From positions 160,823-224,822 of the forward strand of contig NZ_QRUF01000001.1 in the NCBI RefSeq assembly GCF_003458415.1: a stretch of 64,000 bases of DNA, read 5' to 3'. Positions 29,136 through 51,507 of the stretch are shown here, piece by piece. The notes below the pieces were generated by a model. That model saw only the letters and a program-made list of their open reading frames with translations, was not told the origin of the DNA and ran no database searches. The translations under genes and the position numbers were made by a program. The DNA is from Collinsella sp. AF25-2LB. GTDB lineage: Bacteria; Actinomycetota; Coriobacteriia; Coriobacteriales; Coriobacteriaceae. The first letter of the stretch is position 1, and every line of letters starts with the position of its first letter.

Positions 29136-29274
29136 TGTCTTGATCTGTAACAACTAGGGATGGAAATTGGGTCTAGGTGTTACAGATCAAGACAGGAAGA
29201 AATGGTCCTATGGAAAATCTCGATCTGCAACAGCTGGCCGCCAAAACCGGCCCTTCGTGTTACAGATTGAGATG
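29136..29274. repeat. Two 59-bp palindrome units (29136-29194, 29216-29274)
   Basis: Unit 29136 has perfect 17-bp arms (TGTCTTGATCTGTAACA and its complement), in which both arms carry matching changes from the family consensus TGTCTCGATCTGTAACA. Unit 29216 starts 80 bp later and is more diverged. They lie in the 443-bp gap between the Nramp gene and gltB, which otherwise holds only the gltB promoter. Confidence 0.85.
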
Positions 29275-29457
29275 TTTGAAACGGCGAGCTTACGGGCCGA
29301 ACATGGGGTCCTTGTTGTCGCCCTTGAGGTCGGTGGCACCCACTCGTAGGGTGTGCGTTACGCGATTGTTTCGAAACGGGCGGGAAACACAACGGGCCGG
29401 CGATGCACCTAGTATGCCTATTCAACTGACTGTCTAAATATCTAGGGGAGGATCGCG

Positions 29458-32400
29458 ATGCAGGCAGATTCCGCTCAGCAGCAGGGCCTTTATCGCCCCG
29501 AATTCGACCACGATGCATGTGGCATCGGCGCGCTTGCCGATATCAACGGCGAGCGCCATCACCAGATTCTGGACGATGCGCTGTCCATTCTGGTCAACTT
29601 GGAGCACCGCGGCGGTACGGGACTCGAGAAGAATACCGGCGACGGCGCCGGCATCCTGTTTCAGGTCCCGCATCACTTTTTCCGCAAAGAGGCTCAAAAG
29701 TGCGGCCAGATTCTGCCGGCAGAGGGCGACTATGGCGTGGCCATGCTGTTCTTCCCGCAGGACGACAAGGGCGTAGAGGATGCCCGTCGCGTGTTTGAGG
29801 AGGGCTGCGCCGAGGCCGGCGTGCCGCTGCTCTTTTGGCGCGAGGTGCCCGTCGACCCGCACGACCTGGGCGAGACGGCCCGCGCCTGCATGCCTACTAT
29901 CCTGCAGGCTTTCCTGGGCCGTCCGGACGACACGCTCGCCGGCGATGCCTTTGAGCGTCGCCTGTACGTGTGCCGCCGCACCATCGAAAAGAAGGCCGAC
30001 GCTGAGTTCGCCCTGCGCGACAAGATCTTCTATGTGTGCTCCATGAGCTCGCGCACCATCGTGTACAAAGGTATGCTGGTCGCCACGCAGATGCGCCGTT
30101 TCTTCATCGACCTCAACGACGCCGCTGTCAAAACGGCCGTGGCGCTCGTCCACTCGCGCTACTCCACCAACACCACGCCCAGCTGGGAGCGCGCACATCC
30201 CAACCGCTTTATCATCCACAACGGCGAGATCAACACCCTCAAGGGCAACGTCAACTGGATTCGCGCCCGCGAACCCAACCTGTACAGCCCCGTGCTGCAG
30301 CACGATCTTGAGCGCGTGATGCCCATCATCAACCGCGAGGGCTCCGACTCCGCGATTCTGGACAATGTGCTTGAGTTTTTGGTCATGAACGGTCGCCCGC
30401 TTACACGTGCCGCGTCCATGCTGCTGCCCGAGCCGTGGGACCACAACGACAATCTGAGCGAGGAACGCCGCGCCTACGACGCCTACCAGTCCATGCTCAT
30501 GGAGCCGTGGGATGGCCCGGCGGCCATCGCCTTTACCGACGGTCGCACGCTGGGTGCCGCCCTCGACCGTAACGGCCTGCGTCCCGCCCGCTACTATGTG
30601 ACGCGCGACGGTCGCTTTATGCTGGCAAGCGAGGTGGGCACCATCGAGGTGAGCCCCGAGAACATCCTGACGAGCGGCTGTCTGGGGCCGGGCCAGATGC
30701 TCGAGGTCGATTTTGCCCGCGGCCGCGTGATCTACAACGACGAGCTGCGCGCCCGCTATGCCAAGGAAAAGCCCTACCGTGATTGGATTGCCGAGGAGAC
30801 GCTGACCGTTGACGCGCTCGATGAGCCCGTTGCGGCAACACCCGCCGAGGACGACGAGGTGCCCGCCGCCGTGCGCATGGCCAAGCTCGGGTATCACTGG
30901 GATGATGTTGACGAAGTCGTGCGTCCCATGGCCCAGCAGGGCAAGGCGCCGCTCGCCTCGATGGGTATCGATGCGCCGCTGGCCTGCCTGTCCAAGAAGA
31001 CGCGCTCGTTCTTCGACTACTTCTATCAGCTGTTCGCTCAGGTCACGAACCCGCCGATCGACGCTCTTCGCGAGCATATGGTCACCTCGACCACGCTCTA
31101 CCTGGGCAACCACGGCAACCTGCTCGAGGACTCCCGTACGGCCTGCCAGCTGGTGCGCCTGGAGCGTCCGCTGCTGAGCGAGGAGGAGTTCGACCGCATT
31201 TGCGCCATCGACCGCGTGGGCTTTAAGACCCGCCGTTTCCGTGCCGTCTACCGCCGCGATGCCGGCGAGGGTGCGCTGCAGGCTGCGCTCAAGCAGCTTG
31301 CAGAGGACGTTGAGGCTGCGGTCTGCGACGGCGTGAACATCGTGGTGTTGAGCGATCGTGCCGCTGCGGGCGAGGTGCCCGTACCGTCGCTGCTCGCCGT
31401 GGGCTGCGTGCACAACCACCTGATTCGCGCCGGCGTGCGTACCTTTGCCGACATCGTGGTGGAGTGCGGCGACGCCGTGTCCCCGCACGACTTTGCTGCA
31501 CTGGTGGGCTACTCCGCGAGCGGCATCTATCCGTACAACGCACATGCGTGCATCCGCGATCTGGCGGCACGCGGCGACCTGGACGTGACGGCCGAGCAGG
31601 GCATCGCCAACTACAACAAGGCTGCGACCGCCGGCATCGTTTCCATCATGTCCAAGATGGGCATCTCCACGGTGCAGAGCTACCATTCGGCGCAGATCTT
31701 CGAGGCCGTGGGCTTCACTCCGGAGTTCGTCAACGCGTACTTCGCCGGCACGTTGAGCCGTGTGGGCGGTATGGGTGTCGAGGACGTCGAGCGCGAGCAG
31801 AATGAGCGCTACGACGCCGCGCTCGCTATCCTTAAGAGCCCGGCTCCCGATCAGCTGCCCACGCTGGGTCTGACCAAGTGGCGCCCGCTCGGCGGCGAGG
31901 ATCACCTTATCGACCCGCAGACCGTCTACCTGCTGCAGACCGCCTGCCGCGAGGACAGCTACGACACCTTTAAGGAGTACAGCGCCCGCCTGCACCGCAC
32001 CGGCCGTGCCGTGCGCCTGCGTGACCTGCTGGACTTTAATGCCAACGGTCGCACGCCGGTTTCGCTCGACGAGGTGGAGCCCGCGCTCAACATCGTCCGC
32101 CGCTTTAACACCGGCGCCATGTCGTACGGTTCCATCAGCAAAGAGGCACACGAGTGCATGGCCATCGCCATGAACCGCCTGCACGGCCGTTCCAATTCCG
32201 GCGAGGGCGGCGAGGATCCGCGTCGCGAGACCCCACTGGCTAACGGTGACTCCAAGAACTCCGCGATCAAGCAGGTAGCAAGTGCGCGATTTGGCGTGAC
32301 GAGCCGCTACCTGTGCAGCGCCTTCGAGATTCAGATCAAGATGGCCCAGGGCGCCAAGCCCGGCGAGGGCGGTCACCTGCCCGGCAGGAAGGTCTACCCC

Positions 32401-34155
32401 TGGATTGCCGAGGTCCGTCAGTCCACGCCCGGCATCGGCCTGATCTCGCCTCCGCCGCACCACGACATCTACTCCATCGAGGACCTGGCAGAGCTGATCT
32501 TTGACCTTAAGAACGCCAACCCCGGCGCGCGCGTGTCGGTCAAGCTGGTCAGCGAGGCCGGCGTCGGCACCATCGCCACCGGCGTGGCCAAGGGCGCTGC
32601 CGACAAGATTTTGATCAGCGGCCACAATGGCGGCTCGGGTGCCGCTGCGCGCGACTCTATCTGGCACGCGGGTCTGCCGCTGGAGCTTGGCCTTGCCGAG
32701 GCCCAGCAGACGCTGCTGCAAAACGGTTTGCGCTCACGCGTGGTGCTCGAGGCCGATGGCAAGCTCATGGACGGCACCGACGTCGCCGTCGCCTGCCTGC
32801 TGGGTGCCGAGGAGTTTGGCTTTGCGACCATGCCGCTCATCTCGATGGGCTGCCTCATGCAGCGCGACTGCCAGCAGGATACCTGCCCGGCCGGCATCGC
32901 TACGCAAAACTGCCGCCTGCGTCGCGGCTTCCGCGGCAAGCCAGAGCACGTCGAGCACTTTATGCTCTTTGTTGCCGAGCAGCTGCGCGAGGTCATGGCG
33001 AGCCTGGGCTTCCGCACCGTCGACGAGATGGTCGGCCATCCCAAGTGCCTGCGCCAGATCGAGGTCCCGGGCAACCGCAAGGCCAACCTGCTCGATCTGT
33101 CGCCCGTGCTGGCAAGCGCGACCTGTGAGTTTGGTGCCCACATCCCGGGCGCCGACGGCCGTCACTTCCTGCCCCAGATGGCTGCGGACAGCGAGCTCGA
33201 TAAGACGCTCGACTCCACGTTGTTTGTGCCCTATACGGCCGATGCCCGTGCGCACCTGCGTCCGATTCGCTTTCGCGCCGATATCGCCAACGTCAACCGC
33301 TGCGTGGGCACCATCTTGGGCAACGCGGTGACCAAGGCGCATCCCGAGGGCCTGCCCGCCGGCTCCATCACCATCGATTGCGATGGTTCGGCCGGTCAGA
33401 GCTTTGGCGCCTTCCTGCCGCGCGGCATTACGCTCAACGTGTGCGGCGACGCCAACGACTACTTTGGCAAGGGCCTTTCGGGCGGCGAGGTGTCGGTGCG
33501 CCCCAACCCGCATGCGACCTACAAGTTCGACGAGAACATCATCGTGGGCAACGTTGCGTTCTTTGGCGCTACGAGCGGTCGCGGCTTCATTAACGGCCTG
33601 GCCGGCCAGCGCTTTGGCGTACGCAACTCCGGTGCCACCGTGGTGGTCGAGGGCTGCGGCAACCATGGCTGCGAGTACATGACGGGAGGTCTGGCGCTCA
33701 TCCTGGGCGAGGTCGGGCAGAACTTCGCCGCCGGCATGACGGGCGGCGTGGCTTACGTCTTTGACCAGTACGGCACGCTCGATGCCCGTGTGAACCACGA
33801 GAGCGTTGAGCTTAAAGCCCCGACGGCCGGTGAGCTGGCGCAGATTCGCGAGCTCATCCAGGAGCACGTGGACGCGACGCAGAGCCCGCGCGGCATTAAG
33901 CTGCTCTACAGCTTTGAGACGATGAGCAAGCACTTTGTGAAGGTCATTCCAACCGAGTACGAGCGCGTGCTGGCGATTGTCGCCGCCGCCGAGGCCGTCG
34001 GCAAGACGCATGAGCAGGCCGAGGAGCTGGCGTTTGACATTGTGACCGGTCGCGCCGACGCCGCCGATGTCGCTCGCTTTGATGTGGCGGGTGGTGTCGC
34101 TGGCGCTGTGCCCGCCGCCGCCAGCTCTGTTGCTTCGACCAAGAAGGAGGCGTAA
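29458..34155 (+). CDS. gltB: Glutamate synthase, large subunit
   Basis: 1565 residues. The mature N-terminal nucleophile is the Cys in HDACGIGAL (residue 21), so the first 20 residues are a propeptide to be removed. Next come the glutaminase domain (about 21-440), the central domain, the FMN-binding synthase domain with the 3Fe-4S cysteines in CLMQRDCQQDTCPAG (about residue 1135-1150), and the right-handed beta-helix of GXGXG repeats (GLSGGEVSV, GNVAFFGATSGRGF, and so on). It transfers the amide of glutamine to 2-oxoglutarate. GGGGAGGAT precedes the ATG. The small subunit gene follows after 5 bp. Confidence 0.98.
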   Translation: MQADSAQQQGLYRPEFDHDACGIGALADINGERHHQILDDALSILVNLEHRGGTGLEKNTGDGAGILFQVPHHFFRKEAQKCGQILPAEGDYGVAMLFFPQDDKGVEDARRVFEEGCAEAGVPLLFWREVPVDPHDLGETARACMPTILQAFLGRPDDTLAGDAFERRLYVCRRTIEKKADAEFALRDKIFYVCSMSSRTIVYKGMLVATQMRRFFIDLNDAAVKTAVALVHSRYSTNTTPSWERAHPNRFIIHNGEINTLKGNVNWIRAREPNLYSPVLQHDLERVMPIINREGSDSAILDNVLEFLVMNGRPLTRAASMLLPEPWDHNDNLSEERRAYDAYQSMLMEPWDGPAAIAFTDGRTLGAALDRNGLRPARYYVTRDGRFMLASEVGTIEVSPENILTSGCLGPGQMLEVDFARGRVIYNDELRARYAKEKPYRDWIAEETLTVDALDEPVAATPAEDDEVPAAVRMAKLGYHWDDVDEVVRPMAQQGKAPLASMGIDAPLACLSKKTRSFFDYFYQLFAQVTNPPIDALREHMVTSTTLYLGNHGNLLEDSRTACQLVRLERPLLSEEEFDRICAIDRVGFKTRRFRAVYRRDAGEGALQAALKQLAEDVEAAVCDGVNIVVLSDRAAAGEVPVPSLLAVGCVHNHLIRAGVRTFADIVVECGDAVSPHDFAALVGYSASGIYPYNAHACIRDLAARGDLDVTAEQGIANYNKAATAGIVSIMSKMGISTVQSYHSAQIFEAVGFTPEFVNAYFAGTLSRVGGMGVEDVEREQNERYDAALAILKSPAPDQLPTLGLTKWRPLGGEDHLIDPQTVYLLQTACREDSYDTFKEYSARLHRTGRAVRLRDLLDFNANGRTPVSLDEVEPALNIVRRFNTGAMSYGSISKEAHECMAIAMNRLHGRSNSGEGGEDPRRETPLANGDSKNSAIKQVASARFGVTSRYLCSAFEIQIKMAQGAKPGEGGHLPGRKVYPWIAEVRQSTPGIGLISPPPHHDIYSIEDLAELIFDLKNANPGARVSVKLVSEAGVGTIATGVAKGAADKILISGHNGGSGAAARDSIWHAGLPLELGLAEAQQTLLQNGLRSRVVLEADGKLMDGTDVAVACLLGAEEFGFATMPLISMGCLMQRDCQQDTCPAGIATQNCRLRRGFRGKPEHVEHFMLFVAEQLREVMASLGFRTVDEMVGHPKCLRQIEVPGNRKANLLDLSPVLASATCEFGAHIPGADGRHFLPQMAADSELDKTLDSTLFVPYTADARAHLRPIRFRADIANVNRCVGTILGNAVTKAHPEGLPAGSITIDCDGSAGQSFGAFLPRGITLNVCGDANDYFGKGLSGGEVSVRPNPHATYKFDENIIVGNVAFFGATSGRGFINGLAGQRFGVRNSGATVVVEGCGNHGCEYMTGGLALILGEVGQNFAAGMTGGVAYVFDQYGTLDARVNHESVELKAPTAGELAQIRELIQEHVDATQSPRGIKLLYSFETMSKHFVKVIPTEYERVLAIVAAAEAVGKTHEQAEELAFDIVTGRADAADVARFDVAGGVAGAVPAAASSVASTKKEA

Positions 34156-34160
34156 GTGCC

Positions 34161-35642
34161 ATGGGTAAGCCCGGTGCTTTTCTTGATATCGATCGCGTGA
34201 CCCACGAGCTTCGTCCCGTGGAGGAGCGCAGCCATGATTTTGATCCGCTGTACGTGGAGCTCGATGACGATGCACGTCGCGCCCAGGCGAGCCGTTGCAT
34301 GATGTGCGGCGTGGCGTTTTGCCAGATGGGCGCGAGCTTTGGCAAGGCACGCCCGAGCGGCTGCCCGCTGCACAACCTGATTCCCGAGTGGAATGAGCTG
34401 GTGTACCGCGGCCGCTGGGACGAGGCTGCCGAGCGTCTGTCGCTCACCTCGCCCATGCCCGAGTTCACGAGTCGCGTGTGCCCGGCGCTGTGCGAGGCCG
34501 CATGCAACTTGGGGTCGGTCGACGGTCAGCCCACGACGATCCATGACAACGAGCGTGCGATCAGCGACCACGAATGGGCAAACGGTGGCCCGCGTCGCTT
34601 TGAGCCGGCGGGGGAGGGCGCACCCACGGTCGCCGTGGTGGGCTCCGGTCCTGCTGGTCTGGTGGCAGCATGGGAGCTCGCGCGTCGCGGCGCCCGCGTG
34701 ACGGTGTTTGAGCGTGACGACCGTCCGGGCGGTTTGCTTATGTATGGCATTCCCAACATGAAGCTCGGGAAGTCCGTGGTCGAGCGTCGCGTGGCGCTCA
34801 TGCGCGAGCTGGGCATTGTGTTTGAGCTGAGCGCAGATGTGACGGACCCTGCGGTGGCAGCCAAGCTCGATGGCTTTGACGCTGTCGTGGTGGCTGCCGG
34901 CGCTCGTGCTCCGCGTGGGCTTTCGGCTGCGAACATTGATGCCCCGGGCGTGGTGTACGCCGTGGACTACCTGACGGCTTCGACCGTCTCGGTGCTCGAT
35001 GGCGGAGAGCCCGTGGTGAACGCGTGCGGCCTGGACGTCGTGGTCATTGGCGGCGGCGATACCGGTAACGACTGCGTGGGCACCGCGGTACGTCAGGGTG
35101 CGCGCAGCGTGCGCCAGTTTGAGTTCTTGCCGGCGGCGCCTGATGCGCGCGCGGCGAGCAACCCCTGGCCGCAGTGGCCAAACGTTAAGAAGACCGACTA
35201 CGGCCAGCAGGAGGCCATCGCTGCCATGGGCGGCGAGATGCGCGCTTGGGGCGTGGATACGCTCGAGGTGCTGCTGGACAAGAAGGGCGCGGCCGCGGGC
35301 CTGCGCGTGGTCGATCTGGATTGGTCGGCTGGCAAGCCCGAGCGCATCGCGGGCTCCGAGCACGAGGTGCCGGCGCAGCTGGTGCTCATCGCCTGCGGCT
35401 TTACGGGTCCTGAGCATGGCGTGTTCGATGCGGTAGGCGTGCCTGTTGCCACCGCTGGTCGTCCGCTGCCTGTGATGGCCGTCGAGGACTCGCATCTTGC
35501 GGCGCGTGTCGACGGCGTCGCCGCGGATGCCGCGCCGGTGTATGTTGCCGGTGATGCGCGCAACGGCAGCTCGCTCGTTGTGAACGCCATGGCCGACGCC
35601 CTGGCCTGCGCTGCCGAGGTCGCCGAGGCGCTGGAGCTGTAA
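34161..35642 (+). CDS. gltD: Glutamate synthase, small subunit
   Basis: 493 residues. The N-terminal domain carries the cysteines for two 4Fe-4S clusters (CMMCGVAFC, GCPLHN, CPALCEAAC); then the FAD site VAVVGSGPAGLVAAWELA (about 155) and the NADPH site VVVIGGGDTGNDCVG (about 295). It supplies electrons from NADPH to GltB. The N-terminus PGAFLDIDR is typical. It is co-transcribed with gltB. Confidence 0.97.
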   Translation: MGKPGAFLDIDRVTHELRPVEERSHDFDPLYVELDDDARRAQASRCMMCGVAFCQMGASFGKARPSGCPLHNLIPEWNELVYRGRWDEAAERLSLTSPMPEFTSRVCPALCEAACNLGSVDGQPTTIHDNERAISDHEWANGGPRRFEPAGEGAPTVAVVGSGPAGLVAAWELARRGARVTVFERDDRPGGLLMYGIPNMKLGKSVVERRVALMRELGIVFELSADVTDPAVAAKLDGFDAVVVAAGARAPRGLSAANIDAPGVVYAVDYLTASTVSVLDGGEPVVNACGLDVVVIGGGDTGNDCVGTAVRQGARSVRQFEFLPAAPDARAASNPWPQWPNVKKTDYGQQEAIAAMGGEMRAWGVDTLEVLLDKKGAAAGLRVVDLDWSAGKPERIAGSEHEVPAQLVLIACGFTGPEHGVFDAVGVPVATAGRPLPVMAVEDSHLAARVDGVAADAAPVYVAGDARNGSSLVVNAMADALACAAEVAEALEL

Positions 35643-36737: not shown

Positions 36738-37036
36738 TGTCTCAATCTGTAACGTTTAGGGACAAAAAACCGGTCTACCTGTTACAGATCGAGACGAACG
36801 CTTGGGCGCCGCTGGTTTGTCTAAATCTGTAACGTTTGGGGGCTGGAGAACGTCTAACTGTTACAGAACGAGACGTTTGGCACCTGGTTGGGGGAATGTC
36901 TCAATCTGTAACATCTACAGGCCAAAATTCGACCTACCTGTTACAGATTGAGACAAAGGGTGGACGCGGTACCGAAAGATCTTGGTCTGTAACATCTAGC
37001 GGTCAAAAATCGGTCTTTCTGTTACAGATCGAGGCG
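36738..37036. repeat. Four 59-bp palindrome units in tandem
   Basis: Units at 36738-36796, 36818-36875, 36897-36955 and 36978-37036; starts are 79-81 bp apart. Arms follow TGTCTCGATCTGTAACA and its complement with a few changes each; centres share a loose GTTTAG..AAAA..CTACC pattern. Spacers of about 21 bp do not resemble one another. The last unit ends just before the start of the nuclease-like gene. Confidence 0.9.
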
Positions 37037-37061: not shown

Positions 37062-38132
37062 ATGGTCCATTTGTCCGATGTGGTGGTGATGGAAGTGTCT
37101 AATACCGTTTTTAAACACAAGCATGCAGCACGTAACACCTTGGCGCGGAACAGGATGCTCGCGCGGCTCACGGAGGCGACCGAGCAAGGTGCACTGCTCG
37201 CAACGCATGACAATGCCGAGCTCATGTGGCTACGACGCCATGTTGGAACCGACGATATCGCGGAGCCCGAGCCGTACCTGTTCTGTTTTCAGCATGATTG
37301 GGATGCATTGACGCCGGCGGAGCGAGCGCTGAGGACTATCAAAGGGCTTGCGGAGTTTCATCCCGATTGGGCGTTTTGGGGCTATGACGCGGCGCTTTTG
37401 TGGGGTCTGGAGGTGCCGAATGATCTGCTCGGGCCACGATATCTTGTTAAGACGGGTTGCTCGGTGCCGCTGAGTGCAGGATGTCGGCTGTTGCGTCCGC
37501 AGGCGGCGGGTGCACTTGAACAAGCCGACGGCGTGCAGGTGACGTCGTTTTGGCGCACGGTGGAGGATTGCTTACTGCGTGCGCCGTTCTCCTACGGGTT
37601 GGCGATTGCCGATTCTGCACCGCGGGCGAAAGGCGTATCACGTTGGGATTTGTGCGAGCGCCTCCGCGCCGATTGCGAGGGCAGGCGAGGGTATCGCAGG
37701 GCACAGGTGATTGCGTCGTATGCGGACGGGCTGTCCGAAAACGGCGGCGAGTCTCGGTTCCGAGCGTTCTTTATTGCGTACGGCTTTCCAGTTCCGGAGC
37801 TGCAGGTGGAGTTTCGCGACCCGCTCGATCCGAGCCAGGCGTTTCGCGTCGACTATTTTTGGCGGCTCATGGACGGGACGTGTGTCATCGGCGAGCTCGA
37901 CGGAAAGGGGAAGTACACCTTGCAGAACGGCGAGGGTCGGGAGTCGGTCGGCCCATTCGTGGCAGAACGTCAGCGAGAGTCCCATCTGACGATGCTCGGG
38001 CACAAGGTGCTTCGGTTTACGTTTGATGAACTCAAGAACCCGGGGAAGCTGGCTGAAAAGATGAGGTTGGCGGGTATTCCGCGACGGCCCGATTTGGCTG
38101 AGGAGTGGAGACGTCAGTGGTATGGGCGCTGA
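37062..38132 (+). CDS. AbiEi/DUF559-type protein with putative nuclease domain
   Basis: About 356 residues from the ATG at 37062; an ATG at 37089 is an alternative, since neither has a strong ribosome binding site. The C-terminal 110 residues look like a PD-(D/E)xK nuclease fold of the DUF559/Vsr-like group: FRVDYFWRLMDGTCVIGELDGKGKY (Asp, Glu and Lys in the expected order) and later RQRESHLTMLGHKVLRFTFDEL. The N-terminal part resembles the AbiEi-antitoxin-like regions that are fused to such domains in actinobacteria. It stops in TGA. It is flanked on both sides by 59-bp palindrome units. Its activity is unproven. Confidence 0.7.
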   Translation: MVHLSDVVVMEVSNTVFKHKHAARNTLARNRMLARLTEATEQGALLATHDNAELMWLRRHVGTDDIAEPEPYLFCFQHDWDALTPAERALRTIKGLAEFHPDWAFWGYDAALLWGLEVPNDLLGPRYLVKTGCSVPLSAGCRLLRPQAAGALEQADGVQVTSFWRTVEDCLLRAPFSYGLAIADSAPRAKGVSRWDLCERLRADCEGRRGYRRAQVIASYADGLSENGGESRFRAFFIAYGFPVPELQVEFRDPLDPSQAFRVDYFWRLMDGTCVIGELDGKGKYTLQNGEGRESVGPFVAERQRESHLTMLGHKVLRFTFDELKNPGKLAEKMRLAGIPRRPDLAEEWRRQWYGR

Positions 38133-38139
38133 GAGGTTT

Positions 38140-38279
38140 TGTCTCGATCTGTAACGTTTAGAAGTTGTTTGAGTTCGTAATTGTTACAGATCGAGACAAA
38201 CCGGTGAAACGTCGACCGAATGTCTCGATCTGTAACATCAGGGGGCCCAATAACCCTGTACCTGTTACAGATCGAGACA
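38140..38279. repeat. Two 59-bp palindrome units (38140-38198, 38221-38279)
   Basis: Both units have fully complementary 17-bp arms in the consensus form. The centre of the second also pairs (CAGGG with CCCTG). They start 7 bp after the nuclease-like gene and may act as its transcript end. Confidence 0.9.
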
Positions 38280-39798: not shown

Positions 39799-39849
39799 GC
39801 GCGCGATATGGTGATGCGACAAAGGGACAATCCTTTTGTCATAATCAGA

Positions 39850-43624: not shown

Positions 43625-43696
43625 GTACAGAAATAATATATGAGATTTCGTTACAGATGAGGATGGATGGTTGGCCGATGGACCGTCCCAACCAAG

Positions 43697-43916
43697 CATC
43701 TCAATCTGTAACATCTAGCAGGGAAAATGACCTCTAACTGTTACAGATCGAGACATTGCGTCGAGCCACAACTTAACGTCTCAATCTGTAATATCTGGGG
43801 ACCGTTTTGCCTGCTAGATGTTACAGATCGAGACAAACCATTCGGGGGTAACCCGAACATCTCGATCTGTAACAGTAAGACCGATGTTTGGGTCTTAGTT
43901 GTTACAGATCGAGACA
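43697..43916. repeat. Three 59-bp palindrome units in tandem
   Basis: Units at 43697-43755, 43777-43835 and 43858-43916; starts 80-81 bp apart. In the third, the centre TAAGACC pairs with GGTCTTA, extending the stem. They fill most of the 498-bp gap between the copA promoter and the next gene; the rest is the terminator below. Confidence 0.9.
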
Positions 43917-43946: not shown

Positions 43947-43988
43947 GTAAAACGCCGGGGAGCCCGCGTGATGGGCGCCCCGGCGCAT
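43947..43988 (-). terminator. Terminator of the surface-protein gene
   Basis: CGCCGGGG(C)GCCC and GGGC(T)CCCCGGCG pair on the minus strand and are followed by TTTTACG. Confidence 0.85.
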
Positions 43989-44044
43989 GTTGGGCAGGGT
44001 TTGCGAAGCGGTGGGAGGGAGGAGAAGCCGTCCTCCCGAAATCC

Positions 44045-47000
44045 TTACTCCTGACGACGCTTCTTGTCAGTCAGGAAGACGCCGGCGGCTACGAGCACGA
44101 CACCTCCGATGACAAACGTCTCACCGGCGAGCGCAGCATTGTCGCCCGTGGTGGGAAGCGCCGAGTTGTCGGCCGTCTTGGCGTTGCCGGCAGACGGCTT
44201 TCCAGCAACCGGCTTAGCGGCGGCCTGCGTGATCTTGGCCTGCTCGGCCTTCGCCGCCTCCTGCTCCTGACGAGCGATCTCGTCCTTCAGGGCCTGCTCG
44301 GCGGCAACGCGTTTTGCCTTTGCCTCGTTGTAGGCGTTGAGAGCCTCGGTGTAGGCGGGCGTCGCAGCATCAAGGTCTGCCTGAGCGGCATCAAGTGCGG
44401 CCTTTGCGTTATGTTCTGCCTGCTTGGCGGCGACGCACTTGGCAAAGAGGGCATTGAGCGTATCGTTCGCGTTTGCGTCAGAGCCAGTAGCAATGCCGTT
44501 TTCGACGTTGATGGACTTGAGCTTTCCGAGAGTAGCGGCAGCGGCGTCCGATGCGGCCTGAGAATTCTCGACCGCCTGTTCGGCGTTTGCGATGGCGTCG
44601 TTTGCCGCACCAAGGGCGACTCCGGCCTCAGTCACTGCTGTGTCGGCGTCCTTCTTGGCCGCCTCGGCGGTGGCAAGATTATCGGCTGCATTGCTCAGGG
44701 CGTCGGCACGGGCCTTCTTTGAAGCAAAGTCGTTTTCCGCCGTGGCCAGATTGCTTGTGGCGTGCTCCGCGGTCGCCGCCTTGGCCTCGGCGTTGTCCTT
44801 CGCGGTGTCGAGGGCCTGCTTCTTGGCAGCCCCGTCGAGCTTCGCCTTTTCGAGAGCGCTCTGGGCAGACGTCTGGGCTGCCGTGGCTTCATCAAGCGCC
44901 TGATGGGCCTCATCGGCTTTCTCCTGAGCCGCAGCAACATCGGCTGAATACTTGGCAAGTTCCTTCTTTGCATCTTGCAGAGCCTGCTGCTTTACGAGAG
45001 TCTCTGCCTTGGCGTCATCAACCTTCTTCTGACTCTGAGCGGCTTGCTCTTGCGATGCCTTAAGCTCGGCGCGCTTCTGGTTGACGACCTGCTCTGCGGT
45101 CGCCACGTTGCTTTGGGCGGCTTTGACCTGGTTTTCGGCTTCGGCAACTTTTCCGTTTGCCTTGGCGAGATTCTGCTTTGCTAGGGCAACAGCGGCGGCG
45201 GCACTTGCTACGCTGTCGTTCTTGGCGGCAAGGTCGCTATTCGCGGCAACAATGCCTTCCTGCTTTTGAGCGACGAGGGTCTCAGCTGCCTTTACGGCAT
45301 CGGCTTTCGATGCCGCCGTGCTGCGCTTTTGCTCAAGGTTCGTCTTTGCGGCGGCAAGGTTATCGCTGGCTTTGGAGAGGCTCAGCTGATACTGATCAAA
45401 GAGATTCTCGAGTTCATCGATCGAGTATTCTTTTTCGTACGAACCGTAATTGTTGTCGATCTCCAAGACGAACACATACGGCCAAAGGGTTCCGCGCGAG
45501 TTGATGCCGTATCCCATGGTTTTGGCGTTAGGTTGTACGATATTCAAATAATGGCCGACGGTGCCAAAGTCTGCCCCTTGCTTTTCGAATTCGGTTTTGT
45601 GGCTCCAGAAAGTATCCCAAGCATCTTTGGGGGCAACGTTGCCAAGGCCGGCTTTCGCCGCAGCCTCGTCAAATATCTCCTTTTCAGCATCGACCCATTG
45701 GTGCGCGATGTTTTCTTTAGTACTGAAGTTCCAGGCGGCATTTTCACAATTGGCGTAATCTGAGTGACCTAGCGTTTTGTCAGAGTAATTGGAGTCGGAT
45801 TGAGCGATTGCCATTTGCTCGGCCGTCACCCTAAGCTCACTCAATCCAACGCTTGCACGGTATTCGTTAATCTCGCGCAGCTTGTTAAACGATAGCTTGG
45901 CGTTGTCGAGTGACGTGCCGTCTTTTTTATCGCCAATGGTCGTCGGGTTTTTATCGCTCTGCCTATAGATGATGTTTGCAGCGTCGTTGGCGCCGATGAA
46001 CTGGTAGAAGCCGATGACGCTCTGCGCCTCCGCCGTCGTTGCCTTATCGGTTGCTGCCTTGCATGTATCGTATGCTTTCTGTGCATCGATAACGGCTTGA
46101 TCGGCGGCCTCCTGGTTTGCCTTGGCAGTTTCGAGCGCCTTGTCTGCCTGCTCCTTCTCGGCTTTTGCCTGGTCGACTTGTTTCTGAGCGGCCATTGCCT
46201 TCTCCAGTTCGGCAGCATGTGCCTGCTTCGCCGAGGTCAACTCCGATTGCGCCGCATCGGCTTTCGTCTGGGCTGCCGTTACATCATGTTCGGCTGCTGC
46301 GACTGTCTGCTTCTTGGCTTCGAGCTCGCTTTCGGCGCCGGTGAGGGCGTCCCGCTTGGATGCAACGTCGCTATTTGCCTGAGAAAGGCCTGCTTCGGCA
46401 GTCGCCTGCTGCTGTTTCGCCTGGTCGAGTGCGCTTTGGGCAGCATCGACCTTTGCCTGGGCGGCGTCATACTCCGGGCCCTCGGCGCCTGCCTTTGCGG
46501 CCGCCAAATCGGCTTGTGCGCTGTCGTACGCTGTCTGTGCCGCGACTACCTTACCATCCGCGGCGTTCTTTTCCTGCTGAGCGGAAGCCAGCGTGCCTGC
46601 CGCTTCGTCGTAAGCGCTCTGCGCGGCGCTCTGAGCCTGCTGAGCGTCAGCGAGCGCGGAATCGGCAGTGGCCTTCGCAGCCTTTGCTTGATCCAGAGCG
46701 GCCTGCGCATCTGCGGCAGCCTGCTCGGCGACCTTGATTTCCTCCGGCGTTGCGTTGGCGGCTGCCTTTTGGGCTGCCTCGAGCTTGGCCTGCGCATCAG
46801 CTGCCGCCTGTTTTGCGGCGTCAAGGACCTTCGACTTGTCCTCGGCGTCGGTCTTGGCTGCATCGAGCTTTCCCTGGGCATCCTTCAGCGTGGCACTGGC
46901 GCTGTCGGCCGCCTTGACGCTTTCATCGAGCTGGCGAGCATATTCGGCGCGCGCGGCGGCCTCTGCCTGCGAATTATCGGAGACGGAGACGTCATAGGTG

Positions 47001-47380
47001 CTTTGTGCGTTGTCGCGTGCCGCCTGCTTTTCGGTATAGGGGGCAGCCACCGTGTCGTAGTCGGATTTGGCGTCTGCCTCGGCAGCCTTTGCGGCGTCGA
47101 TCGCAGCCTGCAAGTCGGCAATCTTCTGGGCGTCTGCCTTTACTGCGGAGCCTGCCGCCTCGCCGGCGTGGACAGCAAGCGGGGACATGATCGCGTCCTG
47201 TGCCGTGGTATCACTCACATCGTTGGCAAATGCCGAGAACGGCGCGAGCAGCGACGAGCCGGTCATAGCGATGGTGGTTGCCGCGGTGACGGCGAGTCGT
47301 GTTGCCTTGTGGCCCGAGAATGTGGGGCGAGGCTTGGCGCCGCCTGAGACTTCCGAGTGTTTAGGTGCGTACTTTGTCAT
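44045..47380 (-). CDS. LPxTG surface protein with coiled-coil arms and central CAP domain
   Basis: 1111 residues from the ATG at 47380. Signal peptide (about residues 1-52, ending PFSAFAND), a first Ala/Lys/Glu/Gln-rich coiled coil (about 70-430), a globular CAP/SCP-like domain (about 440-640, with LREINEYRASVGL, GHSDYANCENAAWN, WDTFWSHK, GYGINSRG), a second coiled coil (about 650-1050), then a sortase signal LPTTGDN with hydrophobic tail and KKRRQE. The CAP domain would be held away from the wall. Antigen or adhesion roles are typical for such proteins. The repeats are internal AAAA-type heptads rather than exact copies. Confidence 0.9.
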   Translation of the reverse strand: MTKYAPKHSEVSGGAKPRPTFSGHKATRLAVTAATTIAMTGSSLLAPFSAFANDVSDTTAQDAIMSPLAVHAGEAAGSAVKADAQKIADLQAAIDAAKAAEADAKSDYDTVAAPYTEKQAARDNAQSTYDVSVSDNSQAEAAARAEYARQLDESVKAADSASATLKDAQGKLDAAKTDAEDKSKVLDAAKQAAADAQAKLEAAQKAAANATPEEIKVAEQAAADAQAALDQAKAAKATADSALADAQQAQSAAQSAYDEAAGTLASAQQEKNAADGKVVAAQTAYDSAQADLAAAKAGAEGPEYDAAQAKVDAAQSALDQAKQQQATAEAGLSQANSDVASKRDALTGAESELEAKKQTVAAAEHDVTAAQTKADAAQSELTSAKQAHAAELEKAMAAQKQVDQAKAEKEQADKALETAKANQEAADQAVIDAQKAYDTCKAATDKATTAEAQSVIGFYQFIGANDAANIIYRQSDKNPTTIGDKKDGTSLDNAKLSFNKLREINEYRASVGLSELRVTAEQMAIAQSDSNYSDKTLGHSDYANCENAAWNFSTKENIAHQWVDAEKEIFDEAAAKAGLGNVAPKDAWDTFWSHKTEFEKQGADFGTVGHYLNIVQPNAKTMGYGINSRGTLWPYVFVLEIDNNYGSYEKEYSIDELENLFDQYQLSLSKASDNLAAAKTNLEQKRSTAASKADAVKAAETLVAQKQEGIVAANSDLAAKNDSVASAAAAVALAKQNLAKANGKVAEAENQVKAAQSNVATAEQVVNQKRAELKASQEQAAQSQKKVDDAKAETLVKQQALQDAKKELAKYSADVAAAQEKADEAHQALDEATAAQTSAQSALEKAKLDGAAKKQALDTAKDNAEAKAATAEHATSNLATAENDFASKKARADALSNAADNLATAEAAKKDADTAVTEAGVALGAANDAIANAEQAVENSQAASDAAAATLGKLKSINVENGIATGSDANANDTLNALFAKCVAAKQAEHNAKAALDAAQADLDAATPAYTEALNAYNEAKAKRVAAEQALKDEIARQEQEAAKAEQAKITQAAAKPVAGKPSAGNAKTADNSALPTTGDNAALAGETFVIGGVVLVAAGVFLTDKKRRQE

Positions 47381-47520
47381 TTCTTCTCCCAATCGTTGAA
47401 GGGGTACCTACGACAATTCGTACGTTACGACCGCCGAAAGGGCTCCTGTTGCGCAACATTGGCAAGGAAACATCGACGCACTTGAGTCACATTTATGAGG
47501 CGAAGTTCTCGGCAAGCTAA

Positions 47521-47740
47521 TGTCTCAATCTGTAACATCTAGCAGTGAAAATGACCTCTAACTGTTACAGATCGAGACGGACCATCCGCGGTCAACTCAA
47601 ATGTCTCGTTCTGTAACATCTAGAGAGGTTTTTGACCCCTTACTGTTACAGATTGAGATGTTGTCTCGCGGGGTTGGGGTTTGTCTCGTTCTGTAACATC
47701 TAGACCTGTATCTGCCGAGCTGGTGTTACAGATCGAGACA
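47521..47740. repeat. Three 59-bp palindrome units in tandem
   Basis: Units at 47521-47579, 47602-47660 and 47682-47740; starts 80-81 bp apart. The first is nearly identical, centre included, to the unit at 43697. They lie in the 401-bp gap between the surface-protein start and the kinase stop. Confidence 0.9.
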
Positions 47741-47781
47741 TTTGCCGGGGAGGGGTCCCGTCACGGCAAGACGCCCGCCGC

Positions 47782-49866
47782 CTAGATACAGAACCCGGGA
47801 ATCACACAGGTTAGCTTGTTTGGCTTTTCCGCAGGCGTTGCGTACGTAAAGACGTCGCCGTCGTGGCCCACACGGTTTATGTAGAGCGTGCCTTCGGTCT
47901 CCGATGAGTCGGGGCTCACCGTGCGCTCCCACCAGCAGGTGTCCTTGCCCTTCCACTGGCGGACCATCGTCTCGTTCGTGGAATACGGGCTCACCTTGAG
48001 CTCGCGGAAGAGCTGATACTCCTTGCCCTCGCCGTTGTAGATTTCTGCCAGGTAGTGATAGTCCTTGGCAAACGAATCGGACGGTTGCGTACCGCACAGC
48101 TCGACCATGGCGGGCAGCCAAAGGGTTGCGGGCAACTCGCTCAGGCACGATGCGCTGTTGGCGGCGCCCACATTGTTCGAGACCTTCTTGACCCCTTTAA
48201 TGAGTGCGCGCAACTTGTTGGGCAGCAGCTTAAGGCCGTCGCCGTCGAGCCATTCCCGCAGCTCGCAATCTGCCCAGCCGGCGCTCGGCGGTTCAGACGC
48301 AGCGTTGCGCTCGGCAATACCCGCGTCGAACATAAACGTCAGTCCGGCCTTGCCCGTCCCGTCCAGAAGCTCATCGTGACGGATGCCCACAAGCTGCGCG
48401 CCGACCTCCAGCCCGTTGGTGAGTTTCACGCGCTTGGTACACGGATAGGGGATATGCCCGTTGTCATCGAGCAGATGATAGCGCTTGGCAATCTCGCGTG
48501 CCTCGCTACGGGTCTCGGCGGCCTTAATCTTGAGCGAGATCTCCTGCAGCTGATCCCAAGTGTAGTCGTCAAGCGAACCGCGGATGCCGTTCAGGTAGTC
48601 GGGGATGCCAAAGCCATGGGTCGCCGCCCCAATGACGCTGAGCCCCGCAACGACTGCAACGACGCCACCGATAATAAAGCGGCGGCGGGTCATGGCATCG
48701 TGCCGGGCCTGCTCCAGGATCTCTCGCGCGCGCTCGCCGGCGACGTCGACCTTAAGGTGCGTACCGGAGTCGATGTCGATTGCGGCGTCACTGCCCGCGC
48801 CTTCGCGGCCCTCGGATTCGGCATCGGTGAGGTATGCCGAGAGCGCCTCGAGCATCTGCTGCTCGGTGGGACGATCGCACTGCTCGACTGAGAGACCCTT
48901 CATGATGATTTGGACGAGCGCTTCATCGCCCTCGCAGCGCGGCTCGAGCGGTGCCGGCTTGGTCTTGGTCTTTACGAGATAGAACGAGCCGGTTGCAGCG
49001 GCGTCCGTCGACTCAAAGTCAAACGGTTTGCGACCGCTGTAGAGCTGGTACAAAATGCTCGAAAGCGCATAGACGTCGATTGCCGGCGAACGGCGAAGGG
49101 CCGCGATGCCTTCGATATCCTGCGTGAGCATCTCGGGCGCGGCGTATGCGGGCGTGGCAAAGCGCCAGATGTCGGCGCGCCGGGTGATCGTGTCGTCGCC
49201 GAGAGCCATGGTCGCGGAGCCCATGTCGATGAGGCAGGGGTCAAAGGAACAATCAGCAATCTGCTGCTCGAGCGTTCGGCTGGTGGTGCGGAACATGATA
49301 TTGGCAGGCGAAAGGTCGCGATGGACGACCGGATTCACAAGGCCTTGGGTCATCAAGAGCGCACGAAGCACGGCGTTTCCGACGGCGGCGACCATCTGGG
49401 TGGTCAGCCCGCCCGAGGCGTCGTGAGGAAGCAGGGGCAGCGCCTGCTTGAGCGAGGTGCCCTCGACCCACTCCATGAGGATGAGAGGGTCATCCTCGCA
49501 CGATCCGTAGCCATAGACGCGCGGAAATCCGCGCAGGTGCGAGACGGTACACAGATGACGGTACTCCTCGAACAGCGCGGCGGTGCTGGCCAGGTGCGCT
49601 GCCGATTGCTCGGCGGAGCGGTCGGGGGCTTGGCCGGAAAGGATGGCGTTGTCCTTGAGTAGCTTGACGGCAAAGACCTCGCCGCTCGTGTTGGTCGCGC
49701 GCAGCACGTGTCCGATGTTGCCGTTGTTGCGGTGGGCCGTCTGGAGAATAAGCGTCATAAACCGACGCTTGGCGTCGTCCTCGGCGCTGGGGTCGACCGC
49801 CACGGCGGTGTCGAACGTGTCAAGACGGATGAGTTTGTCGCCATAGGCGCTATCGGTAGTATCCAT
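47782..49866 (-). CDS. Membrane Ser/Thr protein kinase with extracellular DUF6273-like domain
   Basis: 694 residues from the ATG at 49866 (AAAGGAA upstream). The cytoplasmic kinase domain (about 40-340) has the ATP-binding Lys in FAVKLLKD, HRDLSPANIMF as catalytic loop, a DMG in place of the usual DFG (CLIDMGSA), and YAAPEM. One membrane helix follows (about 405-430, RRFIIGGVVAVVAGLSVIGA). The outer part has GTPW-like features such as REWLDGDGLKLLPN and WWERTVSPDSSETEG, the pattern of DUF6273. It is probably a sensor kinase; the neighbouring FHA protein is a likely partner. Confidence 0.85.
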   Translation of the reverse strand: MDTTDSAYGDKLIRLDTFDTAVAVDPSAEDDAKRRFMTLILQTAHRNNGNIGHVLRATNTSGEVFAVKLLKDNAILSGQAPDRSAEQSAAHLASTAALFEEYRHLCTVSHLRGFPRVYGYGSCEDDPLILMEWVEGTSLKQALPLLPHDASGGLTTQMVAAVGNAVLRALLMTQGLVNPVVHRDLSPANIMFRTTSRTLEQQIADCSFDPCLIDMGSATMALGDDTITRRADIWRFATPAYAAPEMLTQDIEGIAALRRSPAIDVYALSSILYQLYSGRKPFDFESTDAAATGSFYLVKTKTKPAPLEPRCEGDEALVQIIMKGLSVEQCDRPTEQQMLEALSAYLTDAESEGREGAGSDAAIDIDSGTHLKVDVAGERAREILEQARHDAMTRRRFIIGGVVAVVAGLSVIGAATHGFGIPDYLNGIRGSLDDYTWDQLQEISLKIKAAETRSEAREIAKRYHLLDDNGHIPYPCTKRVKLTNGLEVGAQLVGIRHDELLDGTGKAGLTFMFDAGIAERNAASEPPSAGWADCELREWLDGDGLKLLPNKLRALIKGVKKVSNNVGAANSASCLSELPATLWLPAMVELCGTQPSDSFAKDYHYLAEIYNGEGKEYQLFRELKVSPYSTNETMVRQWKGKDTCWWERTVSPDSSETEGTLYINRVGHDGDVFTYATPAEKPNKLTCVIPGFCI

Positions 49867-50003
49867 GGCGTTCCTTTGTCTGGCATGGGTTGCCGCGCGT
49901 ATACGTGAGCAGTGCGGATATCGGTAAAGTACCATGATAGCCGCACTGCCCACGTATACCGCTGAGTATTGTCGTTTACGACGCAGAAGGTAGAAGACGA
50001 AAG

Positions 50004-50036
50004 ACGGACGGCGACCGTCTTCCGATCGCCGTCCGT
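50004..50036 (-). terminator. Terminator after the FHA gene
   Basis: ACGGACGGCGA pairs perfectly with TCGCCGTCCGT; on the minus strand CTTTCGTCTTC follows. The kinase gene downstream is thus at least partly separate. Confidence 0.65.
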
Positions 50037-50037
50037 G

Positions 50038-51000
50038 CTAGTCCACAATGACAAGGAATGTCGTGTAGAGACCCAGATGGAGCCTGTCGCTGTTGGCGAT
50101 TTCCACGGGGGGATAGATCTTGCCGGGCTCGCGTAGGTCGCGCGGCGGCTCGATTACGATATCGCCGTCGCCCGCGCCCGATTCGAGCACCGTGCCGTTG
50201 GTCGATCCAAGGCCCTGGGCGTACCAGTGCTCACCCTCAAGCCAAATGCGAAGATGTTCGCGCGATGCGTCGGCGCCCACATCGGTGATGCTGGGCGAGG
50301 TTTTGGGCAAGGATCCAATTACCGTGCCACGCGGATCGCGTGTGAGGGGATGGATTTGCATGTCGACGCAGTTGTCGGCATGTGTCCTGAGCAGACCGAG
50401 GTTGGGAGCGACGGCGTGCGGCTGATCCAGACTGCCCATAAAGCCACGTCCGACGGTAGTTTCGGTGGTGCCAAAGTGCCCACCCGTCTTGCTGTCGCAA
50501 AAGCGCTCGACGGTGGCCACGCCCTGAACGGGATCGGCGAGCGCCCCCGTTGCCACAAAGAGCATAAGGTAAAGCGTGCTTTTCTCACGCACGGCATTGC
50601 CGTCAAAGTTGTCGATGCGATTGAGGGCATTTGCATATAGGCGGCTGTCCAGCTTGTAGCTGGCGAGAGCCGACATCATTTCGTTGGCGGCCGGACCGCG
50701 ATAGTGCTCGGCGATTGCCCGATAGGCGGACTCGCCGCCGCCGAGCTTGCTGCAGATTGCCGCGGAAAGGTGGAGCGTGGTGACGGTAAAGTCGCTGTAG
50801 ATGGCGGGCGCGCACTGGTCAGGCTTGCGATGGACGATGTAACGGGTGAGATACGAGCGGTTGGAAGAGCATTTCTCGAGCAGGGTACTGCCGAGATAAG
50901 AGTTTCCATTGATGAGCATTCGGGCGATCTCGAGATGTTTAAGACCGCCGAACGAGCGAATATCGTTATAGAGGACCGAGCAAGGCGTCTCTGCTGCCAC
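50038..51000 (-). CDS. FHA-domain protein
   Basis: 320 residues from a GTG at 51000, chosen because AAAGGAGG lies 6 nt upstream. Residues 1-210 are an undefined helical region. The last 100 residues are an FHA domain: DASREHLRIWLEGEHWYAQGLGSTNGT (Ser, His and the STNGT turn that bind phosphothreonine) and a closing SDRLHLGLYTTFLVI. It should read phosphothreonine made by the kinase encoded next, on the same strand. Confidence 0.88.
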   Translation of the reverse strand: MAAETPCSVLYNDIRSFGGLKHLEIARMLINGNSYLGSTLLEKCSSNRSYLTRYIVHRKPDQCAPAIYSDFTVTTLHLSAAICSKLGGGESAYRAIAEHYRGPAANEMMSALASYKLDSRLYANALNRIDNFDGNAVREKSTLYLMLFVATGALADPVQGVATVERFCDSKTGGHFGTTETTVGRGFMGSLDQPHAVAPNLGLLRTHADNCVDMQIHPLTRDPRGTVIGSLPKTSPSITDVGADASREHLRIWLEGEHWYAQGLGSTNGTVLESGAGDGDIVIEPPRDLREPGKIYPPVEIANSDRLHLGLYTTFLVIVD

Positions 51001-51507
51001 GGATACCTCCTTTGATTGCTTCCTAGCCAATATGGCGATAGGAATTAATGGCTCCCGGTGGGCGACGTATTAAATGGCTGCGCAATATACAGCGTAACCA
51101 AAGCAACATTATAGGCCACATGTTCGAAATTGCAGGAAGACTGAGAGATTTGGTTTGGACTGGACGGAAATCCCCCTCTGTCTTGTTCTGTAACATTTGG
51201 ACCCGGTTTTGCCCTGCATCTGTTACAGATTGAGACAATCGGCCAGGCCCGCCCCGTCCGCCTCGTCATCTGTGGTTTACGTGGGGGCATACGGAGTGCG
51301 GGTATACTAACCGGCGGCGAATCTGCTCCATCGCTTAGAGCTGCTGCGTCTGGACGGCGCGTGATAGGGCTGCCAAAGCGATCGCCAGCGTGCTGAGCAA
51401 CGTCCTCTCTGTGCGCACCTGTTTTTGTATGTATTAGCGCACTACCAAGCACGCCCGCGCGGCCGCATGCCGTGCCCATTGCGCGTGCAGATAAGGAACA
51501 ACAACAT
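51001..51507. other. Gene-free divergent region with one palindrome and a long helicase leader
   Basis: Contains one 59-bp palindrome unit (51179-51237) and TATACT (51303-51308), a probable -10 for the helicase gene that would give a leader of about 190 nt. I see no gene in it. Confidence 0.6.
51179..51237. repeat. Single 59-bp palindrome unit
   Basis: Arms TGTCTTGTTCTGTAACA and TGTTACAGATTGAGACA-like; lone unit, with some arm mismatches. Confidence 0.75.

What the first reader, a model, noticed from the sequence alone, without database searches (positions are those of the whole stretch)
29136..51237. A family of 59-bp palindromic units repeated at an 80-bp period
Fifteen units were found by eye: 29136, 29216, 36738, 36818, 36897, 36978, 38140, 38221, 43697, 43777, 43858, 47521, 47602, 47682 and 51179. 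Each is close to 59 bp with 17-bp arms near TGTCTCGATCTGTAACA and its complement. Within clusters the starts are 79-81 bp apart and the 21-bp spacers are unrelated. All lie between genes. Such strict phasing is unlike ordinary REP sequences and unlike CRISPR (arms inverted, centre variable). A transcription, DNA-bending or nucleoid-protein role is possible.
Basis: seen in the sequence. Interest (0 to 1): 0.8.

Follow-up and report, generated by a model that had tools for sequence, protein, structure and literature searches.

The report
Phased inverted-repeat arrays in Collinsella
Gut bacteria around Collinsella aerofaciens carry tens of short DNA units between their genes, built from two mirror-image 17-base arms at a fixed distance and repeated every 80 bases, which look more like docking arrays for a still unknown DNA-binding protein than like RNA hairpins.

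Summary
All 15 units are where stated; arm distance is 42 bp in 14 of 15, and steps are 79-81 bp. In 403 units from related DNA (redundant) the arm distance is identical in 396, and 229 of 241 neighbouring steps are 79-81 bp. The family is confined to one Collinsella clade: 22 of 43 genus genomes carry many units, 4 one or two, 17 none. Of 107 genera sampled in the order only Collinsella matched exactly. It is not an RNA hairpin: arms show no covariation and the 25-bp centre pairs less than chance. No unit lies in a predicted gene. Arms diverge 2-3% between orthologues, other parts 7-10%. Most likely these are BIME-like, DNA-level arrays of protein sites, binder unknown. New variant of a known kind.

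The parts
29136..29194 (.). unit 1 of array a (59 bp)
29216..29274 (.). unit 2 of array a
36738..36796 (.). unit 1 of array b
36818..36875 (.). unit 2 of array b (58 bp, arm distance 41)
36897..36955 (.). unit 3 of array b
36978..37036 (.). unit 4 of array b
38140..38198 (.). unit 1 of array c
38221..38279 (.). unit 2 of array c
43697..43755 (.). unit 1 of array d; centre nearly identical to the unit at 47521
43777..43835 (.). unit 2 of array d; its left part is joined to the right arm of the 47602 unit in G001
43858..43916 (.). unit 3 of array d
47521..47579 (.). unit 1 of array e
47602..47660 (.). unit 2 of array e
47682..47740 (.). unit 3 of array e
51179..51237 (.). single unit f
27713..27729 (-). 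remnant right arm of a degenerate unit, downstream of a hairpin plus T-run
43650..43664 (-). more degenerate right-half remnant upstream of array d
   Evidence: (family D2)
44045..47380 (-). gene (CAP-domain protein, 1111 aa) between arrays d and e; absent from the same place in G001, where arrays d and e are fused

Best explanation
Each unit is a double-stranded DNA element. It holds two inverted copies of a 17-bp recognition sequence for a sequence-specific DNA-binding protein (not identified), set about a dyad with a fixed 25-bp centre that looks bendable. Units are joined head to tail by 21-22-bp spacers, so arms alternate in orientation about every 40 bp. The arrays form regular nucleoprotein complexes in intergenic, largely untranscribed DNA, working like BIME-2 arrays: as loading sites for a topoisomerase (gyrase) or a nucleoid-architectural protein that bends or wraps about 60 bp per unit. 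Copy number changes by recombination or slippage between arms, often in 80-bp steps. Shown: geometry, clade restriction, intergenic position, arm conservation, absence of covariation, unit-sized copy-number changes. Inferred: that a protein binds, which protein, wrapping, and any benefit to the cell.
For: Fixed geometry (396 of 403 units with identical arm distance) although centres have diverged to 46% mean identity among 40 dissimilar units, against 29% for shuffled ones and 88% for the left arm. Arms differ at 31/1545 and 47/1545 sites between orthologous arrays, centres at 215/2575, spacers at 94/992, flanks at 391/5600 and 787/11200 (56 pairs). Arms vary independently of each other (covariation 0.122 against 0.128+-0.009 shuffled; 90.7% of cells paired against 91.1%), so sequence rather than pairing is kept. 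In 89 units the positions -3 to -1, 18-19, 27-29, 37-38 and 57-59 are A or T in 72-100%; the best-fitting period about the dyad is 10.1 bp, and the mean step of 80.3 bp is 8 x 10.04. 0 of 403 units fall in predicted genes; distance to gene 3' ends has median 91 bp, to 5' ends median 179 bp with a 5th percentile of 103 bp. Convergent pairs hold 54 of the 133 arrays with both neighbours, against 91 of 427 gaps of 80 bp or more in the same loci. Recognised terminators lie before the array in 9 of 10 cases.
Against: No binder is identified. ParB-type HTH proteins give no above-cut-off paralogue that tracks the units, HU/IHF (PF00216) was found in 0 of 43 genomes, and actinobacterial IHF is in 42 of 43 with or without units. 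The protein that does track the units is of the Y1 transposase family (21 of 22 unit-rich genomes), which favours the mobile-element rival. The 10.1-bp period is a broad peak (9.9-10.3 nearly as good), was not tested for significance, rests on few independent offsets, and differs from the 10.75 bp of the E. coli gyrase motif (PMC6379681, passages read). Bias towards the replication origin is weak (V-test p=0.025 in G103, 0.08 in G150; Rayleigh 0.10 and 0.31). Sites can be lost: one G103 array is absent from 14 of 18 alignable genomes. Unit detection allowed at most 3 mismatches per arm, which slightly favours conserved arms, and the 56 pairs are not independent.
Confidence: 0.45

Rival explanations
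1. Non-autonomous palindromic mobile element (REP-, REPIN- or MITE-like). The arms are or were bound by a transposase, perhaps the clade's own Y1 (RAYT-like) protein; an 80-bp module spread in the ancestor of the C. aerofaciens clade and was amplified in tandem.
For: All 22 unit-rich genomes have a Y1 gene, against 15 of the other 21. One Y1 protein cluster (at least 60% identity, one copy per genome) is in 21 of 22 unit-rich genomes (not G111) and in none of the others, whose best match is about 41% identical; plain inheritance in the clade could also explain this. Clade-specific burst. The clade carries other palindromic families that are rare or missing in 400-kb samples of two relatives.
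Against: Of the 56 Y1 loci of unit-rich genomes, fetched with about 3-6 kb on either side where the contig allowed, 1 holds units: a multi-copy IS200-type gene in G083, about 1.65 kb from a 3-unit array. The 21 genes of the co-occurring cluster have no family-1 arm within 1.5 kb (closest 4-6 mismatches of 15), and the three whose flanks were scanned show no dispersed palindrome. Arms stay conserved in place while the rest drifts. Centres are too diverged for recent copies. The one empty site examined shows loss between two copies of another palindrome, not a target duplication of the unit.
Confidence: 0.3
2. RNA-level hairpin: terminator, 3'-end stabiliser or small RNA.
For: Inverted 17-bp arms can fold in any transcript (consensus -15.3 kcal/mol); position near gene 3' ends.
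Against: No covariation in the arms and less pairing than shuffles in the centre (42.8% against 50.3+-2.0, 500 of 500 shuffles at least as high). No Rfam match at gathering score. Recognised terminators precede the array in 9 of 10 cases. The consensus has no T-run and a 25-nt loop.
Confidence: 0.07
3. Site-specific recombination sites that exchange small cassettes (attC- or invertase-like).
For: Centres are swapped with both flanks alike in 35 of 356 slot comparisons (clean cases L063/L067/L075). A gene with its arrays is missing in G001, with the junction inside an arm.
Against: No inverted centre in the 356 comparisons, although inverted sites should invert the segment between them. Losing different units from a longer array gives the same 'swaps'. 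No recombinase was searched for or linked.
Confidence: 0.08
4. Operators of a local transcription regulator controlling neighbouring genes.
For: The 17-mer has TGT-ACA ends like many operators (seen in sequence). In G205 and G238 a unit lies between a regulator-like gene and a clpB-like gene (my reading of the proteins, no family search).
Against: Arrays avoid the last ~100 bp before start codons (5th percentile 103 bp); many sit between convergent genes; neighbours in the window are functionally mixed.
Confidence: 0.1

Closest known systems
BIME-2 (bacterial interspersed mosaic elements) of enterobacteria
   Same: Extragenic arrays of palindromic units in alternating orientation, a few copies per array, copy number varying between strains. 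BIME-2 binds DNA gyrase (PMC2817692 and PMC6379681, passages read).
   Different: Here unit, centre and spacer lengths are fixed, centres vary freely, arms lack covariation, and no RAYT-type gene lies among the units.
REP / REPIN with RAYT
   Same: Short palindromes between genes, lineage-specific; a single-copy Y1-family protein co-occurs with them.
   Different: REPs are described as 20-40 bp hairpins, most tagged GTAG or CGTC (PMC3733652, abstract start and passages), with the RAYT gene delimited by inverted REPs (PMC2817692, passages). Neither the tag nor the flanking was seen.
Gyrase-motif DNA (E. coli, Mu strong gyrase site)
   Same: Phased A/T steps that suggest wrapping.
   Different: The gyrase motif has 10.75-bp phasing over about 130 bp and is degenerate (PMC6379681, passages); here about 10.1 bp and two strict sequence arms.
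parS/Noc/SlmA/MatP-type chromosome sites (recalled)
   Same: Dispersed protein sites; the arm resembles parS at its ends (recalled).
   Different: Those are single short palindromes, not 80-bp-phased arrays (recalled); no above-cut-off ParB paralogue tracks the units.
CRISPR arrays
   Same: Conserved repeats with length-fixed variable spacers.
   Different: Repeats alternate in orientation; arrays have 1-8 units; centres share internal motifs (TAG, A/T triplet, CTA).

Membership tests
REP (RAYT-associated) | unit is an imperfect hairpin whose stem is kept by compensatory changes | tested here: not met
   arms at shuffle level, centre below it
REP (RAYT-associated) | RAYT (Y1 transposase) gene delimited by inverted units | tested here: not met
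   all 56 Y1 matches of the 22 unit-rich genomes (of 85) fetched: 55 hold no unit, 1 (G083, IS200-type) has a 3-unit array about 1.65 kb away on one side
REP (RAYT-associated) | a RAYT-type gene is present where the repeats are | tested here: met
   one Y1 cluster in 21 of 22 unit-rich genomes and 0 of the 21 others; shared ancestry alone could give this
REP (RAYT-associated) | GTAG or CGTC tag at one foot of the hairpin | tested here: not met
   position tables: edges are A/T plus TGTCTC; no such tag conserved
BIME | extragenic, alternating palindromic units in small arrays | tested here: met
BIME | binds gyrase, IHF or Pol I | not testable with these tools
   needs binding or cleavage assays
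CRISPR | direct repeats with foreign spacers | tested here: not met
   arms inverted; centres share motifs; spacer matches to phages were not searched
CRISPR | adjacent cas genes | not tested
   no CRISPR or defence library was searched
MITE | terminal inverted repeats with target-site duplication | tested here: inconclusive
   one empty site seen: loss between two copies of another palindrome, no duplication made by the unit
Rfam structured RNA | match to a curated family at gathering score | tested here: not met
Intrinsic terminator | GC-rich hairpin followed by T-run | tested here: not met
   consensus has no T-run; terminators, where recognised, mostly precede arrays
Integron attC | asymmetric folded site at the 3' end of gene cassettes next to an integrase | not tested
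   no integrase search made; centre shows no conserved pairing
parS / ParB | extra ParB-family protein present with the sites | tested here: not met
   one strong match in 42 of 43 genomes. Of 11 second matches one is above the cut-off (G001 only); 10 are below it, 9 of them in unit-rich genomes and 1 in G238. The one examined (G150) is a YhcG/DUF1016 PDDEXK protein

The most novel reading that the evidence does not exclude
The arrays are sequence-programmed nucleoprotein scaffolds: a clade-specific protein binds alternating arms every four helical turns and bends or wraps the phased A/T centre, giving a regular chromatin-like fibre at about 13-18 chromosomal stations in a genus in which no HU/IHF protein (PF00216) was detected.
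Probability: 0.15. Interest if true: 0.8.

Novelty: new variant of a known kind. Interest (0 to 1): 0.52.

Why it matters
Palindromic intergenic arrays are usually explained as transposase-made hairpins. Here is a family in a common human gut bacterium where the hairpin reading fails its test and geometry is kept after the centre sequence has largely drifted, yet one Y1-family protein follows the arrays through the clade without lying beside them. That makes a clean test system for whether such arrays are docking sites that organise DNA or the remains of mobile elements. Array copy number also varies between strains, often in 80-bp steps, which could serve as a typing marker.

Tried and rejected
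RNA hairpin or riboregulator: rejected on pair counts and lack of an Rfam match. ParB/Noc paralogue: none above cut-off that tracks the units; the weak second match of G150 is a YhcG-type nuclease. HU/IHF: none in 43 genomes; actinobacterial IHF is present with or without units. Origin-centred distribution: only weak (positions typed, clusters merged within 20 kb). Invertase or cassette recombinase: no inverted centre in 356 comparisons. Phage origin: of three viral contigs matched, one carries true units (L187, beside an integrase-like gene); two fail the arm scan. Hits in Crickella, Treponema and Bacteroides (L041, L054, L090) fail the arm scan and add no unit to any count. My first ORF scorer missed genes and was replaced.

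Literature: five searches for the family itself or for Collinsella repeats found no description in the held open-access library; I saw listings, plus passages of PMC8040213, PMC2817692 and PMC3733652. One further search each for BIME/gyrase and Topo-Seq; passages of PMC6379681 were read. Supplements were not searched, and most subscription papers are not held.
Full report
OBSERVATION. The 15 units are present as described. Arms of 17 bp start 42 bp apart in 14 of 15 and 41 bp apart in one; successive units inside a cluster start 79-81 bp apart. A remnant right arm lies at 27713 and a weaker half at 43650. The window is Collinsella-like DNA with 60.6% G+C. Its own assembly is not held; the nearest genome held, G001, shares 45% of sampled 31-mers. 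By its unit coordinates G001 matches the named record C. aerofaciens 1001271st1_C3 (my inference).

DISTRIBUTION. An exact-core pattern found units in 23 of 297 sampled genomes of the order, all in one genus of 107: 22 with 18-48 units each and one with a single unit; the reversed pattern gave none. A covariance model built from the 15 window units (R1) found many units in 22 of 43 genus genomes, one or two units in 4, and none in 17 (in one search the list of candidates scored per genome was capped, so counts there are lower bounds). Of the 4 low-copy genomes, G205 and G238 share one unit upstream of a clpB-like gene, at a place that also has units in C. aerofaciens loci. The G063 region is 92-94% identical to C. 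aerofaciens loci over several kb, so it may be acquired.

GEOMETRY. In 137 sequences (window plus L001-L136; many are orthologues or overlap) the left-to-right arm distance was 40 (15-bp arms) in 396 of 403 units, and right-to-next-left 40 or 41 in 254 of 263. Unit steps were 79-81 bp in 229 of 241, and 161 bp in 10 more, which is two periods. Length is kept although centres are diverged: mean identity 46% among 40 dissimilar units, against 29% for shuffled ones, while left arms average 88%. Flanking DNA shows 600 gap openings per 15373 mismatches in 1384 alignments. By that rate roughly one indel per pair of centres would be expected (my estimate), yet only 7 of 403 units differ in length.

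NOT A HAIRPIN. On 40 dissimilar units the arms form standard pairs in 90.7% of cells, against 91.1% after shuffling partners, with covariation 0.122 against 0.128+-0.009. The centre pairs in 42.8% against 50.3+-2.0, with all 500 shuffles at least as high. A separate test on 89 units agreed: pairing in the centre was below expectation at several positions, lowest z -3.1, with small positive deviations (z about 2) at two arm positions. Relatedness of units may contribute to the deficit. Arms are thus kept as sequence, not as a stem.

WHAT IS KEPT. Between 56 orthologous array pairs the arms differ at 2.0% and 3.0% of sites, centres 8.4%, spacers 9.5%, flanks 7.0%. Outside the arms, A or T is found in 72-100% of 89 units at -3 to -1, 18-19, 27-29, 37-38 and 57-59 (unit numbering with TCTC at 1-4). 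At the edges A and T are about equally common; position 19 is otherwise mostly G and 37 mostly C. The best single period is 10.1 bp about the dyad, a broad peak not tested for significance. Taken with the mean step of 80.3 bp this would place arms and A/T steps on one helical lattice. This is suggestive only, because few offsets are independent.

PLACE. By my own gene finder none of 403 units lies in a gene. Of 162 arrays, 133 had both neighbours within the locus: 54 convergent, 49 tandem, 30 divergent; gaps of 80 bp or more in the same loci number 91, 244 and 92. These loci were fetched because they hold units, and orthologues repeat. Arrays may lie close to 3' ends (median 91 bp) but mostly stay away from start codons (5th percentile 103 bp). 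In the complete genome G103 there are 18 arrays: 7 convergent, 8 tandem, 3 divergent. A recognisable terminator lay between a gene's 3' end and the array in 9 cases and beyond it in 1; none was found in 12. In the window the one terminator recognised also lies between gene 44045-47380 and its array. G103 has 43 units by fixed pattern after dropping one chance match at 3 mismatches and 44 by arm scan; G150 has 49. Clustering towards dnaA is weak.

DYNAMICS. Of 779 comparisons of array sites between loci (both directions counted, overlapping loci included), 683 differ by at most 420 bp. Of these 224 are within 3 bp of no change and 206 within 3 bp of a multiple of the 80-bp period, while 253 are neither; many of those rest on flanks that do not align up to the array. 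In G001 the left part of the window's 43777 unit is joined to the right arm and spacer of the 47602 unit, so the segment between them, including the CAP-domain gene, is missing and the junction lies in an arm. In 356 comparisons of the same slot (40-bp flanks at least 70% identical on both sides) the centre was at least 80% identical in 292, 60-80% in 29, and below 60% in 35; none was inverted. Clean replacements have flanks up to 97-100% identical. Loss of different units from a longer array, by slippage between arms, is the simplest cause. One G103 array is present in 4 genomes (G103, G075, G119, G178) and absent from 14 others that could be aligned; 4 loci could not. The arrayed allele has a different palindrome of about 39 bp on both sides, the empty one has a single copy.

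BINDER. ParB-type HTH is single and strong in 42 of 43 genomes. Of 11 second matches one is above the family cut-off (G001, 31.9 bits); 10 are below it, 9 in unit-rich genomes and 1 in G238, and the one examined (G150) is a YhcG/DUF1016 nuclease-like protein. HU/IHF (PF00216) gave 0 of 43, while 9 of 14 control genomes rang. Actinobacterial IHF is in 42 of 43, with or without units. Gyrase is a candidate by analogy with BIME-2 (PMC2817692, PMC6379681, passages read), though its motif has a 10.75-bp period.

Y1 TRANSPOSASES. Y1 matches occur in 37 of 43 genus genomes: all 22 unit-rich ones and 15 of the other 21. I fetched 81 of the 85 matches as stretches and had 4 as search loci. One cluster of proteins (at least 60% identity) holds exactly one member from each of 21 unit-rich genomes (all but G111) and none from the others; the best outside match is about 41% identical. 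So a clade-specific, single-copy, RAYT-like protein follows the units. Yet its genes have no unit beside them: R1 over all 56 Y1 loci of unit-rich genomes found units only near one IS200-type gene of G083, about 1.65 kb away, and within 1.5 kb of the 21 genes no family-1 arm is closer than 4 mismatches of 15. Co-occurrence may be shared ancestry or a functional link; binding or cleavage tests would decide.

CONCLUSION. The family works most like BIME-2 arrays but fails two defining tests of RAYT-associated REPs (paired stems, flanking of the transposase gene). I file it as a new variant of extragenic palindromic arrays, most likely DNA-level, binder unknown. The literature searches named above found no description.

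Noticed in passing
window 17493-17557 and 26677-26740; 13 copies in the 400-kb G150 sample (L225-L244), 1-2 in that of G164, 0 in that of G238: A second palindromic family, GTTGCGGTG(A/G)AATA...TATT(T/C)CACCGCAAC, 64-65 bp with a variable centre. Its arms seem to change in a paired way (GTTCC/GGAAC against GGGAC/GTCCC; by eye, not counted with a control), unlike the main family.
   Followed up: partly
window 22434-22470 and 39815-39843; L265-L268, L225-L244: Three more short palindromes (AACCACCAC..GTGGTGGTT, AACCTGCCA..TGGTAGGTT, TGTGACAAA..TTTGTCACA), 7-9 copies each in the G150 sample and 0-1 in samples of G164 and G238. Three of the 20 G150 stretches had been chosen because they hold arrays.
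   Followed up: partly
L164, L167, L159, L162, L341 and 16 further loci: A single-copy Y1-family (RAYT-like) protein in 21 of 22 unit-rich genomes and none of the other 21, at a place without flanking palindromes in the loci scanned.
   Followed up: partly
L216:15286-17100, L221:2086-4190, L224:10484-12240, L224:16977-18840 (G164): Composite elements of about 1.7-2 kb bounded by GTGGCATAG palindromes and containing further nested palindromes.
   Followed up: no
43 Collinsella genomes: No HU/IHF-type protein (PF00216) found in 43 of 43, while actinobacterial IHF is found in 42 of 43. Not checked in other Coriobacteriia.
   Followed up: no
L187:906-2289 (viral contig): A phage-like contig that carries two units about 120 bp from an integrase-like gene, so a phage may have integrated beside an array.
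   Followed up: no
window 37150-38130: About 1 kb between two arrays scores as non-coding and has no Pfam match in its longest frame.
   Followed up: no
window 44045-47380: A 1111-aa CAP-domain protein gene sits between two arrays and is missing from the same place in G001, where the two arrays are fused.
   Followed up: partly
window 9610-9645: L31-Coriobacteria ribosomal protein leader (Rfam RF03128, 35.1 bits).
   Followed up: no
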